A stretch of 5,978 nt of DNA from positions 1 through 5,978 of the forward strand of contig OMRS01000286.1 of the NCBI GenBank assembly GCA_900313545.1. The letters run 5' to 3'. This stretch comes from an uncultured Eubacteriales bacterium. Its GTDB lineage: Bacteria; Bacillota_A; Clostridia; Christensenellales; Aristaeellaceae. The notes under the pieces were generated by a model. That model did no database searches, was not told the DNA's origin, and saw only the letters and a program-made list of their open reading frames with translations. Made by a program: the position numbers and the translations under genes. Of this stretch, positions 1,992 through 5,978 are shown piece by piece (positions within the stretch are counted from its first letter, which is position 1; each line of letters opens with the position of its first letter).

Positions 1992-3087
1992 GTGATCGAA
2001 CTGGACATCTACCGCCAGGAAATGGCAAAAATCCGCGAAAGCATCGTTGAGGCAGGTGAGTCACTTTAACATCGCCGGACTGAAGGAACAGCTGGCGGAA
2101 ATGCATGAGACCATGAACGAGCCGGATTTCTGGAATGATCTGGAGCGTTCCACCGCGGTGACCAAGAAGGTGCGCATCGCCGAGAACAAGGTGAACCACT
2201 GGAAGCACTTGGGCGAGCGGGCCGACGACGTGGAGGCCACCATGGAGCTGGCCGAGGAAATGGAAGATGAGGAGCTGGTGCAGGAGGCCGGGGCGCAGAT
2301 CGAGGAGCTCCGGCGGGATCTGGAGGCCCTGCGCCTGGAGACCCTGCTGCGGGGCGACTATGACAGCTGCAACGCCTACCTCTCCCTCCATGCCGGCGCG
2401 GGCGGAACCGAGGCCCAGGACTGGACCCAGATGCTCTACCGGATGTACACCCGCTACTGCGAGCGCCACGGCTATACCGTCAAGGTCCTGGATCTGCTGG
2501 ACGGCGATGAGGCGGGCGTCAAGAGCGTGACCTTTGAGGTGACGGGGGACAATGTCTACGGCTTCCTGCGCGGAGAAAAGGGCGTGCACCGCCTGGTGCG
2601 CATCAGCCCCTTTGACGCCAATGCCCGGCGGCATACCAGCTTCTCCTCCCTGGACGTTTCGCCCATCATCGAGGAGGAGATGGAGGAACTGGACATGGAG
2701 GATGTGCGCATCGACACCTACCGCGCCAGCGGCGCGGGCGGACAGCACGTCAACCGGACGGACTCCGCCGTAAGAATGACCCACATCCCCACGGGTATCG
2801 TGGTGCAGTGCCAGAATGAACGCAGCCAGGTGCAGAACCGCGAGGTGGCCCTGCGCATGCTCAAGAGCAAGCTGGTGGAGCTGCACGAGCGGGAGCGGGA
2901 GCAGAAGATGGCGGACATCAAGGGAGAAATGAAGAAGATCGAATGGGGCAGCCAGATCCGCTCCTACGTGTTCCATCCCTACTCCATGGTCAAGGACCAC
3001 AGGACCGGCTACGAGACCAGTAATGTGGATGCGGTCATGGACGGCGAACTGGACGGGTTCATCACAGCATATCTGCAGATGCAGTAA
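1992..3087 (+). CDS. prfB: Peptide chain release factor 2, with programmed +1 frameshift (join 1992..2066, 2068..3087)
   Basis: RF2 releases finished proteins at UGA and UAA codons. A zero-frame start, GTG at 1992, encodes 25 codons and hits TAA at 2067-2069. Skipping T2067 gives a continuous protein of 364 residues, almost exactly the family length. Seen in the protein: an N-terminal helical domain with the conserved EPDFWND segment; the SPF stop-codon recognition tripeptide at residues 205-207 (codons 2605-2613); and the GGQ peptidyl-release motif at 249-251 (codons 2737-2745), preceded by RASGA. The Ala at 245 corresponds to the position that is Thr in E. coli K-12. The C-terminal WGSQIRSYVFHPYSMVKDHRT block is also typical. 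Pairing with secA upstream is common in Firmicutes, and an intrinsic terminator follows the stop. The unusual point is the UAA in the shift site. A non-shifting start at TTG 2047 or GTG 2056 is less likely because it drops the conserved N-terminus. Confidence 0.97.
2050..2070 (+). other. RF2 programmed +1 frameshift site, CTT TAA C with internal SD-like AGGTGA
   Basis: The zero frame reads ...GAG TCA CTT TAA and the +1 frame continues AAC ATC GCC GGA. The P-site leucine tRNA can slip from CTT (2064-2066) to TTT (2065-2067), as at the classic CTT TGA C site. A stimulatory SD-like AGGTGA lies at 2054-2059, 4 bases before CTT; it can pair fully with the 5' part of the anti-SD. Known in the family: the slip is favoured when the stop is read slowly, so low RF2 raises RF2 synthesis. 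The odd feature is TAA in place of the usual TGA, since TAA is also read by RF1. Confidence 0.87.
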
Positions 3088-3134: not shown

Positions 3135-3872
3135 ATGAAGAGAAATGGATTGGGGGCAGGGTTTGCCCTGGTGCTGCTGCTGGTGGCGGCGGCATCGCTT
3201 CTTGGCGCGGCGGTGCGCCTGTCCGGGGAGAGCGCGCTGTACGGGAGCCTTTCCCGCAGCGCGGTGGAGGAACTGTACCGCAGGGAGGGAAGGGAGAAGG
3301 TGACCCGGGAGGACATCACCGGGGCCATCGGCCTTGATGAGGACAGCCAGGAGGAGGTGGCCCGGGAACTGGCGGCCTTCATGCGGGAGGAGAGCGAAAC
3401 GCTCCCCCGCGTGCTGGGAGATAAGGAAGTGCAGCACATGTGGGATGTCCGCAGGCTGATGAGCTCCCTTGACCGCCTGTCCCGGGGGATGCTTCTCGTG
3501 TCGGGCATCGGGGTCCTGCTGCTTGCCCTCTGCAGGAATTCCTGGAGGGAAGCGACCAGGGCCCTTCTGGCAGGGGCGGTGCTCGCCGGGCTGGTCGTGG
3601 CGGTCTCGGTGCTTGCCGGGGGCATCCTGGGCTTTACCCGGTTATTTGAGCTGGTGCACCGGGTGGCCTTTGACAATCAGCTCTGGATGATGGATCCCGA
3701 AACACAGATCCTGATCCGCATGATGCCCTCGACCCTCTTTGAGCATGCCCTGCACCTGACGGTGGTGCGCGCTCTCTCCGGGATGCTCATCACCCTGGCC
3801 CTGCTGACCGGGGTGTACGTCCTGGTGCATGGAATGACCCTGCGGAATCTGCAGGCGGGAGGAAAAGAGTGA
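3135..3872 (+). CDS. Four-segment integral membrane protein, TIGR01906/DUF1461-like, function unknown
   Basis: The 245-residue product has four hydrophobic segments, at about residues 8-26, 117-133, 142-166 and 212-232. The first is followed by a charged region of about 90 residues, rich in Glu and Arg, probably on one face of the membrane. Between segments 3 and 4 lies H175-x3-FDNQLWMMDPETQILIRMMP. This resembles the FH..FF.ND.W..DP..D.LI..LP signature I associate with the Firmicute TIGR01906/DUF1461 family; I recognise it by pattern only and know of no established function. ATG 3135 is chosen because AAGGAG (3125-3130) sits 4 bases upstream, a slightly short spacing, and the protein begins MKRN before the first membrane segment. 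Its TGA stop overlaps the tsaD start, so the two are translationally coupled. Expression must come from read-through of the prfB terminator or from a promoter inside prfB, because none fits between. Confidence 0.85.
   Translation: MKRNGLGAGFALVLLLVAAASLLGAAVRLSGESALYGSLSRSAVEELYRREGREKVTREDITGAIGLDEDSQEEVARELAAFMREESETLPRVLGDKEVQHMWDVRRLMSSLDRLSRGMLLVSGIGVLLLALCRNSWREATRALLAGAVLAGLVVAVSVLAGGILGFTRLFELVHRVAFDNQLWMMDPETQILIRMMPSTLFEHALHLTVVRALSGMLITLALLTGVYVLVHGMTLRNLQAGGKE
3857..3871 (+). promoter_or_regulatory. tsaD ribosome binding site and overlapping GTGA start/stop
   Basis: GGGAGG at 3857-3862 lies inside the end of the membrane-protein gene, 6 bases before GTG 3869. The GTG overlaps the preceding TGA (3870-3872) as GTGA, a translational-coupling arrangement. 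It favours GTG 3869 over the in-frame ATG 3911, which has no comparable SD but would give an N-terminus closer to other TsaD proteins. Confidence 0.7.
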
Positions 3873-4927
3873 ACTATCTCAGACAAGTGGAAGAAACTAC
3901 ACGAAGACTGATGCGGGAGGGGCATGCCACCCTCCTGGCGGTGGAATCCAGCTGCGATGAGACCGCGGCGGCCGTCGTCCGGGACGGACGGCAGGTGCTC
4001 TCCTCGGTCATCTTTTCGCAGATCCCCCTGCATGCGGTCTATGGCGGCGTGGTGCCGGAAATCGCCTCCAGGAGCCACGTGGAAAAGCTGGATGTGGTGG
4101 TGGACGAGGCGCTGCTGAAGGCGGGCATGAAGCTGGAGCAGATGGATGCCATGGCGGTGACCTGCGGTCCCGGGCTGGTGGGCGCCCTGCTGACGGGGGT
4201 TTCCCACATGAAGGCGATGGCCTATGCCTGCGGAAAGCCCCTGGTGCCGGTCAACCACATCGAGGGGCATGTGAGCGCCAATTATGTGGCGCACCCGGAC
4301 CTGGAGCCGCCCTTCGTGTGCCTGGTGGCCTCCGGCGGGCATTCCCACATCGTACGGGTGCGGGACTACGGGGAGTATGAGCTGCTGGGGCAGACCACGG
4401 ACGATGCCGCCGGCGAGGCGTTTGACAAGGCGGCCCGGGTGCTGGGGCTTCCCTATCCCGGGGGGCCTCTGCTGGACAGGCTGTCCGCGGAGGGGAATCC
4501 CCAGGCGCTGGCCCTTCCCCATGTGCAGACCCGGGGAAGGTACGACTACAGCTTTTCCGGCCTCAAGACCGCGCTCATCAACGCGGTGCACAGGCTGCGC
4601 CAGGCCGGACAGGAGGTTCCCGCGGCGGACATCGCCGCGAGCTTCCAGCATGCCGTGGTGCAGCAGCTCTCGGAAAAGGCCGTGATGGCCGCCCTGGAGA
4701 CCGGGGCCGGGACCCTGGCCATCGCCGGCGGCGTGGCCAGCAACAGCGGACTCCGCCGGGAGCTGGAGCGGCGCTGCCGGGATGCCGGGCTGAAGCTGCG
4801 GATGCCCCCGCCGGTGCTTTGCACCGACAATGCCGCCATGATCGGCAGCGCGGCGTTCTATCGGCTGATGAAGGGGGAAACCGCGGGGCTGGAGCTCAAT
4901 GCCTGTCCCTCCCTGTCCCTGGTCTGA
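3869..4927 (+). CDS. tsaD: tRNA N6-adenosine threonylcarbamoyltransferase TsaD (Gcp/YgjD/Kae1 family)
   Basis: TsaD transfers the threonylcarbamoyl group from threonylcarbamoyl-AMP to A37 of tRNAs reading ANN codons, forming t6A. It works with TsaB and TsaE; TsaC/TsaC2 makes the donor. Those partners are not in this window. The 352-residue protein shows ESSCDETAAAV (residues 26-36), YGGVVPEIASRSHVE (58-72), the metal-binding NHIEGH with H130 and H134, the GGH loop (156-158), DDAAGEAFDKAARVLGLPYPG (178-198), GGVASN (287-292) and the third metal ligand D320 in CTDNAAMIG. All catalytic elements expected of the ASKHA fold are present. The start at GTG 3869 has a good SD and overlaps the upstream stop, but gives about 20 residues before the first strand, more than most homologues. 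ATG 3911 (residue 15) is the alternative. The gene ends just before a long regulatory interval. Confidence 0.97.
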   Translation: MNYLRQVEETTRRLMREGHATLLAVESSCDETAAAVVRDGRQVLSSVIFSQIPLHAVYGGVVPEIASRSHVEKLDVVVDEALLKAGMKLEQMDAMAVTCGPGLVGALLTGVSHMKAMAYACGKPLVPVNHIEGHVSANYVAHPDLEPPFVCLVASGGHSHIVRVRDYGEYELLGQTTDDAAGEAFDKAARVLGLPYPGGPLLDRLSAEGNPQALALPHVQTRGRYDYSFSGLKTALINAVHRLRQAGQEVPAADIAASFQHAVVQQLSEKAVMAALETGAGTLAIAGGVASNSGLRRELERRCRDAGLKLRMPPPVLCTDNAAMIGSAAFYRLMKGETAGLELNACPSLSLV

Positions 4928-4948
4928 ACCGGATTCCGGTCGGGTTTT
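4928..4948 (+). terminator. Possible weak terminator after tsaD
   Basis: ACCGG (4928-4932) can pair with CCGGT (4936-4940) around an ATT loop, followed by CGGG and four T. The stem is only 5 bp and the T-run is short and displaced. Position directly after the tsaD stop and ahead of a gene with its own promoter makes termination plausible, but the signal is weak. Confidence 0.35.
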
Positions 4949-4950
4949 GC

Positions 4951-5015
4951 AGATGTTAAGGAAATGTTAAATACTCTGCAACATCGCGTAACATGGGTTA
5001 ACAATTACACATTCA
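4951..5015 (+). other. A/T-rich segment beside the DnaA-box cluster
   Basis: This stretch is clearly richer in A and T than the flanking genes. It contains ATGTTAA twice (4953-4959 and 4964-4970, 11 bases apart) and the left copy of GTTAACAATTA (4997-5007). It borders the DnaA boxes, as a duplex-unwinding element would in an origin. That role is inference; no long AT-only 13-mer array is seen. Confidence 0.4.
4997..5007 (+). repeat. Left copy of the 11-base flanking repeat GTTAACAATTA
   Basis: This is identical to 5205-5215 in the same orientation, 208 bases away. The two copies bracket the DnaA-box cluster. The first six bases, GTTAAC, are palindromic. The role is unknown. Confidence 0.6.
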
Positions 5016-5018
5016 GAG

Positions 5019-5191
5019 TTATCCACATGGTTGAACAGAGATGCTGTGCACAACTGTGGATAAGTGTGGATAACCGTGCAGGAATGTGCATAAATCAAGG
5101 AATAACTGGAAAAATGACATGTGGATAACTTCAAAATACTGTGGACAACCTTGGATGAACTGTGGAAAACCCCGGGAGATGCGGTGGACAA
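5019..5191. other. DnaA-box cluster (origin-like module or DnaA-titration/regulatory site)
   Basis: DnaA, the replication initiator, binds TTATCCACA (TGTGGATAA on the other strand). Exact matches are at 5019-5027 (+ strand) and 5055-5063, 5065-5073 and 5120-5128 (all - strand). One-mismatch sites, all - strand, are TGTGCATAA 5085-5093, TGTGGACAA 5140-5148 and TGTGGAAAA 5161-5169. Two-mismatch sites are TGTGCACAA 5045-5053 and GGTGGACAA 5183-5191. That is nine boxes in 173 bases, far beyond chance for exact 9-mers. The cluster lies directly after tsaD, with no dnaA, dnaN or rpmH gene in view, so a chromosomal oriC cannot be claimed. From memory, B. subtilis carries a non-oriC DnaA-box cluster next to gcp, the old name of tsaD, which makes a conserved titration or timing site an attractive reading. 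Short open frames across it are repeat artefacts. Confidence 0.8.
5045..5093 (+). repeat. Exact 10-base phased array of GTG(G/C)A units
   Basis: Five box-like units start at 5045, 5055, 5065, 5075 and 5085: TGTGCACAA, TGTGGATAA, TGTGGATAA, CGTGCAGGA, TGTGCATAA. Every block of 10 ends in GTGGA or GTGCA. The unit length equals about one helical turn, so the bound proteins would sit on one face of the DNA. The fourth unit is degenerate. Confidence 0.7.
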
Positions 5192-5204
5192 CCCTGGAAA
5201 AACT

Positions 5205-5215
5205 GTTAACAATTA
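5205..5215 (+). repeat. Right copy of the 11-base flanking repeat GTTAACAATTA
   Basis: This is the second identical copy of the sequence at 4997-5007. It lies 14 bases after the last recognisable DnaA-like box. The flanking bases differ on both sides, so the repeat is exactly 11 bases. Confidence 0.6.
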
Positions 5216-5240
5216 TGTGAAAACACGCACGAAGAACCGC

Positions 5241-5265
5241 GGGTCGGATGTGACGTCCGACCCGG
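5241..5265. repeat. Perfect 9-bp inverted repeat between the DnaA boxes and the ilvB promoter
   Basis: CGGGTCGGA (5241-5249) and TCCGACCCG (5257-5265) are exact reverse complements around TGTGACG. No T-run follows on the + strand and none lies next to it on the - strand, so an intrinsic terminator is unlikely. It ends 52 bases before the -35 element and could be an operator or a structural hairpin. I do not recognise it as the site of a known regulator. Confidence 0.6.
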
Positions 5266-5317
5266 AAAAACGCAGGACAGGGCGCAGTTTTCAGGGGATG
5301 GTGATACGGGTAGTCTC

Positions 5318-5346
5318 TTGACAGGCTGTGCATGGAATGCTAAGAT
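5318..5346 (+). promoter_or_regulatory. Sigma-A type promoter of ilvB
   Basis: A consensus -35 TTGACA (5318-5323) is separated by 17 bases from a -10 TAAGAT (5341-5346; 4 of 6 matches). TGC directly before the -10 forms an extended -10. Transcription would start near 5353-5355, right at the beginning of the T-box leader. Confidence 0.87.
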
Positions 5347-5353
5347 TCGGTTC

Positions 5354-5578
5354 ACATCAGCGATGAAGGGAACGGTCCGCCGGGATACGCCAAGCGAGGG
5401 AGAGAGGGTGCGAGCTCCTGCGGGGAAGGGCGGACGGATCATCCCGGAGCACTTTGGATGAGGGCATGTCCCCAGTCCGGACGGAACCGACCGTTATCTC
5501 GGAGATGAGCCTGGTTGTCCAGGGAAATTAGGTGGTATCGCGAGTCTTTCGCCCTAATGGGGGAGAAGGACTTTTTTT
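5354..5578 (+). promoter_or_regulatory. T-box leader riboswitch of ilvB, likely tRNA-Ile (AUC specifier)
   Basis: T-box leaders bind uncharged tRNA and switch off a terminator. Stem I is clear. A GATGA/GGA kink-turn lies at its base (5362-5366 with 5446-5448), then GGGA/TCCC (5368-5371 with 5442-5445), then the specifier loop and a 7-bp helix GTCCGCC/GGCGGAC (5375-5381 with 5429-5435). The distal part has AGCGAG (5393-5398) and GGTGCGAG (5407-5414). In the specifier loop ATC (5438-5440), followed by A, reads as an Ile codon, which fits ilvB. The T-box proper is GGTGGTATCGCG (5531-5542), a variant of GGTGGNACCGCG. Its TGGT bulge (5533-5536) would pair with the tRNA ACCA end. The antiterminator is ATTAGG+GCG (5527-5532, 5540-5542) with CGC+CCTAAT (5550-5558). 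The specifier assignment is inference from the fold. Confidence 0.94.
5543..5578 (+). terminator. T-box attenuator terminator, mutually exclusive with the antiterminator
   Basis: AGTCTTTCGCCC (5543-5554) pairs with GGGGAGAAGGACT (within 5561-5572) with one G-A mismatch and one G-U pair around a TAATGG loop, followed by a T-run ending at 5578. The left arm re-uses CGCCC of the antiterminator, so only one structure can form. Uncharged tRNA favours read-through into ilvB. Confidence 0.92.
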
Positions 5579-5606
5579 GTATCAATTTCTATGGAGGGGT
5601 TAGGAA

Positions 5607-5978
5607 ATGAAACTCTGCGGCGCGGCGATCCTGATCGAGTGCCTGATCGAACAGAATGTCAAGACGGTTTTCGGTTTTCCCGGCGGCGCGGTGCTGCCGA
5701 TCTATGATGAACTCTACAAGCGCCAGGACCGCATCAGCCATGTCCTGACCGCCCATGAGCAGCATGCCGGGCATGCCGCCGACGGCTATGCCCGTGCGAC
5801 GGGAAAGACCGGCGTGTGCCTGGCCACCAGCGGTCCGGGCGCCACGAACCTGATTACAGCCATTGCCACGTCCTACATGGACTCAACGCCTACGGTGTTC
5901 ATCACGGGCAACGTTCCCCAGAGCCTCATGGGGACCGATTCCTTCCAGGAGGCGGATATCTCCGGCATTACCATGCCC
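5607..5978 (+). CDS. ilvB: Acetohydroxyacid (acetolactate) synthase large subunit, 3' end missing (partial)
   Basis: IlvB is the thiamine-diphosphate catalytic subunit that condenses two pyruvates, or pyruvate with 2-oxobutyrate, in the first shared step of valine/leucine and isoleucine synthesis. The 124 residues seen cover the N-terminal ThDP pyrimidine-binding domain: [17 protein letters not shown] (21-37), the HEQ segment with the catalytic Glu at residue 51, [17 protein letters not shown] (54-70), [22 protein letters not shown] (72-93) and [16 protein letters not shown] (109-124). These match anabolic AHAS rather than other ThDP enzymes. ATG 5607 has GGAGGGG (5593-5599) 7 bases upstream and lies 29 bases after the T-box terminator. 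The frame stays open to the window end; a small subunit (ilvN/ilvH) would be expected downstream. HEQH replaces the more usual HEQG, a minor variation. Confidence 0.96.

What the first reader, a model, noticed from the sequence alone, without database searches (positions are those of the whole stretch)
5019..5191. Dense DnaA-box cluster directly downstream of tsaD
Seen: four exact TTATCCACA boxes, three one-mismatch and two two-mismatch boxes in 173 bases, in a non-coding A/T-rich interval. Known: such density occurs in bacterial oriC regions, in E. coli datA, and in the B. subtilis DnaA-box clusters that restrain initiation. From memory one of the latter lies beside gcp (tsaD) in B. subtilis. 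Inference: this may be a conserved DnaA-titrating or timing element kept next to tsaD across distant Firmicutes, or part of an unusual origin. The genes around it do not explain it.
Basis: partly seen in the sequence, partly recalled or inferred. Interest (0 to 1): 0.78.

Follow-up and report, generated by a model that had tools for sequence, protein, structure and literature searches.

The report
Conserved DnaA-binding array beside tsaD
Just after the tsaD gene lies a dense row of binding sites for DnaA, the protein that starts chromosome copying; similar rows, often with the same spacing, follow tsaD in most of the Firmicutes sampled here, which points to an old control site for chromosome replication.

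Summary
The boxes are real: four exact, three one-mismatch and two two-mismatch TTATCCACA sites at 5019-5191. With <=1 mismatch the whole window holds 9 against 0.64 expected. In an even draw of Bacillota genomes, 94 of 146 tsaD loci carry >=3 boxes in 250 bp within 600 bp of the tsaD stop. Elsewhere in the same loci 7 of 146 do, all further downstream of tsaD. Draws from three other phyla give 0 of 83. The next gene falls into 34 groups in 120 loci, so a promoter of the next gene does not explain the array. The arrays share a grammar: 460 of 504 boxes point one way, and steps of 9, 12 and 21 bp recur. The array is patchy: absent after tsaD in Lachnospiraceae, present in 11 of 29 loci of the window's family. 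Best reading: the local copy of the B. subtilis gcp DnaA-box cluster, assembling ATP-DnaA and restraining re-initiation. Binding and function in this organism are inferred. The phylum-wide conservation and grammar look new, but the two key B. subtilis papers could not be read.

The parts
3869..4927 (+). tsaD (gcp), the gene to which the array is attached
   Evidence: Pfam TsaD PF00814, E 3.7e-91; ORF
5019..5191 (.). DnaA-box array: nine boxes, eight of them reading TGTGGATAA on the tsaD strand
5019..5027 (+). DnaA box, exact; the only one in this orientation
5045..5053 (-). DnaA box, 2 mismatches
5055..5063 (-). DnaA box, exact
5065..5073 (-). DnaA box, exact
5085..5093 (-). DnaA box, 1 mismatch
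5120..5128 (-). DnaA box, exact
5140..5148 (-). DnaA box, 1 mismatch
5161..5169 (-). DnaA box, 1 mismatch
5183..5191 (-). DnaA box, 2 mismatches
5354..5559 (+). T-box leader of the downstream gene: context, not part of the array
   Evidence: Rfam RF00230, 73.8 bits, E 4.6e-16, below the gathering score of 93
5607..5978 (+). Start of a TPP-enzyme gene (ilvB type by context and T-box): context
   Evidence: Pfam TPP_enzyme_N PF02776, E 2.9e-39

Best explanation
The array is the local copy of an old DnaA-binding locus on the 3' side of tsaD in much of the Bacillota, the same locus as the B. subtilis gcp/ydiF DnaA-box cluster. Co-oriented boxes with steps of 9, 12 and 21 bp and a phase of about 11 bp would let DnaA-ATP protomers dock side by side into a short oligomer. 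When the replication fork passes tsaD, part-way from oriC to the terminus, the number of these sites doubles, free ATP-DnaA falls and untimely re-initiation is restrained. Shown here: the boxes, their orientation bias and spacing grammar, the attachment to tsaD rather than to the next gene, and a position away from dnaA in other Bacillota. Shown in print: in vitro binding of the B. subtilis copy with preference for ATP-DnaA. Inferred: DnaA binding in this organism, oligomer formation, and the effect on initiation.
For: Density far above chance. 94 of 146 Bacillota tsaD loci with >=3 boxes within 600 bp, against 7 of 146 elsewhere in the same loci and 0 of 83 in three other phyla. 54 of 68 spacers after tsaD against 7 of 156 other spacers. 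34 next-gene groups. One orientation for 460 of 504 boxes and recurring 9/12/21-bp steps; period near 11 bp. A 25-base triple pattern hits 61 places in 55 of 149 genomes, 35 of them within 700 bp after tsaD, reversed control 0. In B. subtilis the gcp/ydiF region has 10 sites, Kd 0.15 uM with ATP-DnaA and 0.33 with ADP-DnaA, and 16-fold more recovered with ATP-DnaA at low concentration (PMC4447404 passages). Reviews: deleting six clusters outside oriC advances initiation (PMC13220808 passages; PMC5295017 passages).
Against: 52 of 146 Bacillota loci have fewer than three boxes, as do 18 of 29 usable loci of the window's own family and the Lachnospiraceae loci, so the site is dispensable or can move. 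The window's steps (10, 10, 20, 35, 20, 21, 22 bp among its eight co-oriented boxes) fit the common grammar only in part. Parsimony on a TsaD tree needs 36 changes. Grammar-like triples also occur away from tsaD: 24 of 61 hits. A review says the effect in B. [quoted passage not shown] No binding or initiation data exist for this organism.
Confidence: 0.62

Rival explanations
1. A DnaA-dependent regulatory site for the neighbouring transcription units: DnaA bound here tunes tsaD from its 3' side, or the next gene, according to replication status.
For: DnaA is a transcription factor at several B. subtilis regions (PMC4447404). The boxes keep their orientation relative to tsaD (460 of 504).
Against: The next gene belongs to 34 groups in 120 loci and is on either strand (96 and 24). 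In B. subtilis and in 18 of 30 loci of its wider group the array lies between two 3' ends. In this window the next gene has its own T-box leader. A 3'-end effect on tsaD is not excluded.
Confidence: 0.12
2. A nucleotide-switch locus like E. coli datA or DARS: the array changes DnaA-ATP hydrolysis or exchange, not only the amount of free DnaA.
For: A stereotyped spacing suggests a defined complex rather than loose storage. The B. subtilis copy prefers ATP-DnaA. A 2015 paper already compared B. subtilis clusters with datA in function (PMC4585315 passage).
Against: No activity has been measured. B. subtilis lacks IHF, which datA needs (PMC13220808 and PMC5295017 passages). A review states that no B. 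subtilis regulator of DnaA-ATP conversion is known.
Confidence: 0.18
3. Part of an unusual chromosomal origin.
For: Box density and a locally A/T-rich stretch.
Against: No dnaA or dnaN in the window. In 22 one-contig Bacillota genomes tsaD is 0.096-0.308 genome lengths from dnaA. 42 of 48 dnaA loci fetched have their own cluster, those of the two nearest relatives included: 8 boxes in L096 and 5 in L097. The 9-bp step is in 8 of 48 dnaA loci against 74 of 100 tsaD arrays. The window's own genome could not be checked.
Confidence: 0.03
4. A chance cluster or a compositional artefact.
For: The 52 of 146 Bacillota loci with fewer than three boxes.
Against: Shuffles of the same region (max 3 in 2,000, against 7); other spacers of the same loci (7 of 156); reversed-pattern control 0 in 149 genomes; shared spacings.
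Confidence: 0.01

Closest known systems
B. subtilis gcp/ydiF DnaA-box cluster, one of the strongest DnaA-binding regions outside oriC (PMC4447404)
   Same: Same place, on the 3' side of tsaD; similar number of sites (10 there by that paper, 9 here); intergenic; away from dnaA.
   Different: Next gene differs (convergent ydiF there, a T-box-controlled gene here). Binding is measured there and only inferred here. The B. subtilis sequence itself was not available to align; loci from the order of Paucisalibacillus stood in for it.
E. coli datA
   Same: Box cluster outside oriC that lowers initiation (PMC5295017 passages).
   Different: datA needs IHF, which B. subtilis lacks, and drives DnaA-ATP hydrolysis; not shown here. 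Different gene context.
E. coli DARS1/DARS2
   Same: Chromosomal DnaA-box loci away from oriC.
   Different: DARS raise DnaA-ATP by nucleotide exchange. Core geometry is recalled and was not compared.
oriC box arrays of Bacillota
   Same: Same box word and density.
   Different: The abutting 9-bp step is in 8 of 48 dnaA loci but 74 of 100 tsaD arrays. No dnaA or dnaN nearby.

Membership tests
gcp/tsaD-type DnaA-box cluster (B. subtilis DBC) | Several DnaA boxes close together in an intergenic region | tested here: met
gcp/tsaD-type DnaA-box cluster (B. subtilis DBC) | Lies on the 3' side of tsaD | tested here: met
   92 bp from the tsaD stop to the first box; B. subtilis position from PMC4447404
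gcp/tsaD-type DnaA-box cluster (B. subtilis DBC) | Lies outside oriC | tested here: inconclusive
   True in 22 one-contig Bacillota genomes; own genome not held
gcp/tsaD-type DnaA-box cluster (B. subtilis DBC) | Bound by DnaA, ATP form preferred | not testable with these tools
   Published for B. subtilis only
gcp/tsaD-type DnaA-box cluster (B. subtilis DBC) | Its removal, with other clusters, advances initiation | not testable with these tools
   Reviews of Okumura 2012 only
oriC | dnaA or dnaN beside the cluster | tested here: not met
   Not in the 6-kb window
datA | IHF-dependent stimulation of DnaA-ATP hydrolysis | not testable with these tools
   IHF site not searched for; B. subtilis lacks IHF
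DARS | Three-box core that releases ADP from DnaA | not tested
   Core geometry recalled, not compared

The most novel reading that the evidence does not exclude
The tsaD array is an ancestral replication-control locus of the whole Bacillota whose coded spacing builds an ATP-DnaA-specific oligomer that changes the nucleotide state or cooperativity of DnaA (a Gram-positive counterpart of datA), not merely a sink, and whose place part-way along the replichore serves as a timer. It would be the missing DnaA-activity switch of Firmicutes.
Probability: 0.2. Interest if true: 0.87.

Novelty: new member of a known kind. Interest (0 to 1): 0.66.

Why it matters
[quoted passage not shown] subtilis, and that no regulator there is known to affect DnaA-ATP/ADP conversion (PMC5295017 passages). 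The in vitro binding study wrote that there were not enough regions to define which features give ATP-DnaA preference, naming orientation and spacing among them (PMC4447404 passages). About a hundred diverged arrays at one locus with a shared grammar are such a data set. They predict which spacings matter, tell where to look in other Firmicutes, and suggest that one of the six B. subtilis clusters has been kept by selection since early in the phylum.

Tried and rejected
oriC reading: disfavoured on position. Promoter of the next gene: rejected on neighbour diversity. Plasmid origin: no match to 4928-5606 in the plasmid collection. RNA element in the box stretch: no Rfam match at gathering score in the window; at E<=1 only the T-box further downstream. 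A single second home for the triple: 24 of the 61 hits lie away from tsaD; 20 of the 24 were fetched and read by eye, their genes differ, and four were not read. Descent of the Lachnospiraceae murC array from the tsaD array: suggested by tsaD-array-murC order in other genomes, but there the boxes run the other way relative to murC (120 to 39), so not claimed. DnaD-family genes in the window's order: 0 of the 30 loci fetched (from 61 genomes) have >=3 boxes. Conserved sequence between the boxes: only a C before boxes and an A-rich patch in 32 and 25 aligned arrays. A pattern for the order 9-then-12 was tried in only 7 genomes, 0 hits, Sporomusa among them although it has an array. Rows dropped: of the 149 genomes, G150 and G051 (partial tsaD) were not fetched and G013 is the already held L065, which leaves 146; the twin L133 was left out of spacing, anchor and neighbour counts but not of the 94 of 146; L350, L380 and L384 fell out for short downstream sequence, and second segments of split genes (L324, L354, L382, L383) were not counted. 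The 22 genomes are those whose contig length I knew; other genomes with tsaD and dnaA on contig C1 were not used. Two pairs of species draws are capped: searches returned the best 30 loci of 39 and 41 genomes with a match, which favours TsaD proteins closer to the window's.

Full report
Observation. With at most one mismatch the window has 9 sites against 0.64 expected, 7 of them in the cluster. Region 4928-5330 holds 7 against a mean of 0.16 and a maximum of 3 in 2,000 dinucleotide shuffles. Eight of the nine sites read TGTGGATAA on the tsaD coding strand. The stretch 5000-5220 is 41% G+C in a 62% G+C window. Genes in order: secA (partial), prfB (PCRF and RF-1 domains), a Lit-family membrane gene, tsaD, then a TPP-enzyme gene with a T-box leader at 5354-5559 (73.8 bits, below Rfam's gathering score of 93, E 4.6e-16; not reported at gathering score).

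The B. subtilis precedent. [quoted passage not shown] 16-fold more of it was recovered with the ATP form in the low-concentration comparison. Two reviews (passages) report that removing six clusters outside oriC advances initiation. [quoted passage not shown] A paper on E. coli (passage) likens the B. subtilis clusters to datA in function. The primary papers (Ishikawa 2007, Okumura 2012) are not in the held library.

Close relatives. No genome is held for the window. The two nearest of 80 tsaD loci (77% and 74% TsaD identity) both carry boxes just after tsaD, 6 and 5 at <=1 mismatch, ahead of downstream reading frames that differ from each other and from the window's. From the family of G001, 40 genomes were drawn, 39 gave a match and the best 30 loci were returned. 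One has only 145 bp downstream; of the other 29, 11 have >=3 boxes in 250 bp within 900 bp and 18 do not. So the array is patchy in this family.

Phylum survey. All 149 genomes drawn evenly from the phylum of G013 (a Brevibacillus genome) have tsaD. 146 loci were read: 30 returned by the search and 116 fetched (G150 and G051 have partial tsaD and were not fetched; G013 is L065). Within 600 bp of the tsaD stop, 94 of 146 have >=3 boxes in 250 bp, 69 have >=4 and 36 have none (recounted). In the rest of the same loci (888 kb) 7 of 146 have such a cluster. All seven lie 0.8-3 kb downstream of tsaD, and six of these loci lack one next to tsaD, which looks like insertion of a gene between; the loci hold more sequence downstream than upstream, so this control is lopsided. 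Among spacers of at least 120 bp, called with a simple ORF caller in 115 loci, 54 of 68 after tsaD and 7 of 156 others pass; those seven again start 0.5-2.9 kb downstream of tsaD. From the order of G014 (Paucisalibacillus), 26 of 29 usable loci (30 returned from 41 genomes) have >=4 boxes, up to 12, and 18 of 30 have a convergent ABC-F gene next, the B. subtilis order. Of the 80 named loci, 78 have enough downstream sequence and 18 have >=3 boxes, among them Alkaliphilus, Sporomusa, Thermovorax, Kroppenstedtia, Brevibacillus, Amphibacillus and Macrococcus; none of those labelled Lachnospiraceae does. Draws from the phyla of a cyanobacterium, a Coriobacteriia member and a Chloroflexi member give 0 of 29, 0 of 28 and 0 of 26. 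Array-bearing survey loci have a median pairwise TsaD identity of 55%, and 34 of them are mutually below 60%. Parsimony on a FastTree TsaD tree of 227 rows needs 36 changes: widespread, but often lost or regained; ancestry at the base of the phylum is an inference.

Grammar. In 100 arrays (>=3 boxes, within 3.5 kb after tsaD, twin L133 left out) 460 of 504 boxes have one orientation. A 9-bp step between same-way boxes is in 74 arrays, 12 bp in 53, 21 bp in 53, and steps of 42-45 and 51-54 bp recur. Spacings show a period near 11 bp (vector length 0.48 over 797 pairs; 0.42 for the 527 above 25 bp). A common order is a pair (9), a gap of about 42-45 and a triple (12, 9), seen in Bacilli and Clostridia; Sporomusa has the pair and the triple with a longer gap. 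The triple scores at least 22 of 27 in 43 of 100 arrays and in 0 of 100 stretches upstream of the tsaD end (arrays chosen for boxes, so only the contrast counts). In 48 dnaA loci (18 of carriers, 30 best-scoring of 149) the 9-bp step is in 8 and the 12-bp step in 17, so the tsaD arrays are not simply copies of oriC. The triple as a pattern of 25 set bases with up to 3 mismatches hits 61 places in 55 of 149 genomes, the reversed control none. 35 of the 61 lie within 700 bp after tsaD; of the 37 within 5 kb, 36 are on the tsaD strand; 24 lie elsewhere. Outside the boxes little is conserved. The window's own steps among its eight co-oriented boxes (10, 10, 20, 35, 20, 21, 22) fit the phase only in part.

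What the array is attached to. A next gene was found in 120 positive loci and falls into 34 groups by BLAST, 96 on the tsaD strand and 24 opposite. That speaks against a conserved promoter of the next gene. In 22 genomes with tsaD and dnaA on one contig of about genome size, tsaD is 0.096-0.308 genome lengths from dnaA, median 0.166 (coordinates typed in; dnaA stands for oriC). The 16 with the array span 0.102-0.275 and the 6 without span 0.096-0.308, so the distance is a property of tsaD and no evidence for the array as such.

Where it is missing. In Lachnospiraceae loci tsaD is often followed by tRNA-Ser genes and a contig end (10 of 12 loci scanned). 30 of 60 genomes of the family of G171 (Eisenbergiella) have the triple, 38 hits in all; here the reversed control hits once. 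28 loci of 27 of these genomes were fetched. In 20 of the 28 the array lies beside murC, and in 19 of these a relative of a DnaD/DnaB-family gene lies on the other side, about 1.6 kb away in L470 (Pfam PF07261 checked on the L446 protein only). In some other Bacillota the order is tsaD-array-murC, which suggests one block that split, but the Lachnospiraceae boxes run the other way relative to murC (120 to 39). The link is left open.

Mechanism. Shown: sites, orientation, spacing, attachment to tsaD; in print, in vitro binding of the B. subtilis copy. Inferred: DnaA of this organism binds here; one-way boxes at 9-12 bp let AAA+ domains of ATP-DnaA stack; doubling of the sites at fork passage lowers free ATP-DnaA and restrains re-initiation. 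Control of tsaD from its 3' side and a datA/DARS-like activity are not excluded.

Novelty. A DnaA cluster beside gcp is known in B. subtilis. That clusters are kept by tsaD across the phylum with a shared spacing code was not seen in ten searches of the held library, of which I saw listings, and passages of PMC4447404, PMC13220808, PMC5295017, PMC12371093, PMC4585315, PMC8203912 and PMC10977104. Only PMC4447404 holds DnaA, gcp and ydiF together, and no paper holds both 'DnaA boxes' and tsaD. PMC12371093 reports box enrichment near oriC in E. coli and Salmonella and does not mention Bacillus. The two most likely earlier sources were not readable, so the novelty claim is provisional.

Noticed in passing
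L446, L447, L449, L453-L455, L457-L460, L463-L472: In Lachnospiraceae a DnaA-box array lies beside murC in 20 of 28 fetched loci, with a DnaD/DnaB-family replication gene (PF07261 in L446) on the other side in 19. The boxes run opposite to those after tsaD.
   Followed up: partly
window 4998-5007 and 5206-5215: The 10-base word TTAACAATTA flanks the array on both sides as a direct repeat, 208 bp apart; 0 expected in shuffles. Unexplained.
   Followed up: no
window 1993-2080: prfB seems to keep the programmed +1 frameshift site, but the in-frame stop reads TAA (CTTTAAC) where the usual site, as I recall it, has TGA. If real, the site would not be specific to release factor 2.
   Followed up: partly
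L003, L005, L006, L008, L011, L012, L013, L014, L020, L024: Lachnospiraceae-type contigs often break 1-1.5 kb after tsaD, just past tRNA-Ser (tga, mostly also gga) genes; an rRNA operon beyond the break is a guess.
   Followed up: partly
L076, L213, L214: In Paenibacillus (L076) and two related loci the array lies 2.5-3 kb past tsaD, next to the convergent ABC-F gene, as if a gene had been inserted between tsaD and the array.
   Followed up: partly
L287, L288: Two genomes have a further DnaA-box array, 6 and 7 boxes, between the same two neighbouring genes away from tsaD (by eye).
   Followed up: no
window 5354-5559: T-box leader ahead of the ilvB-type gene, E 4.6e-16 but below Rfam's gathering score.
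   Followed up: yes
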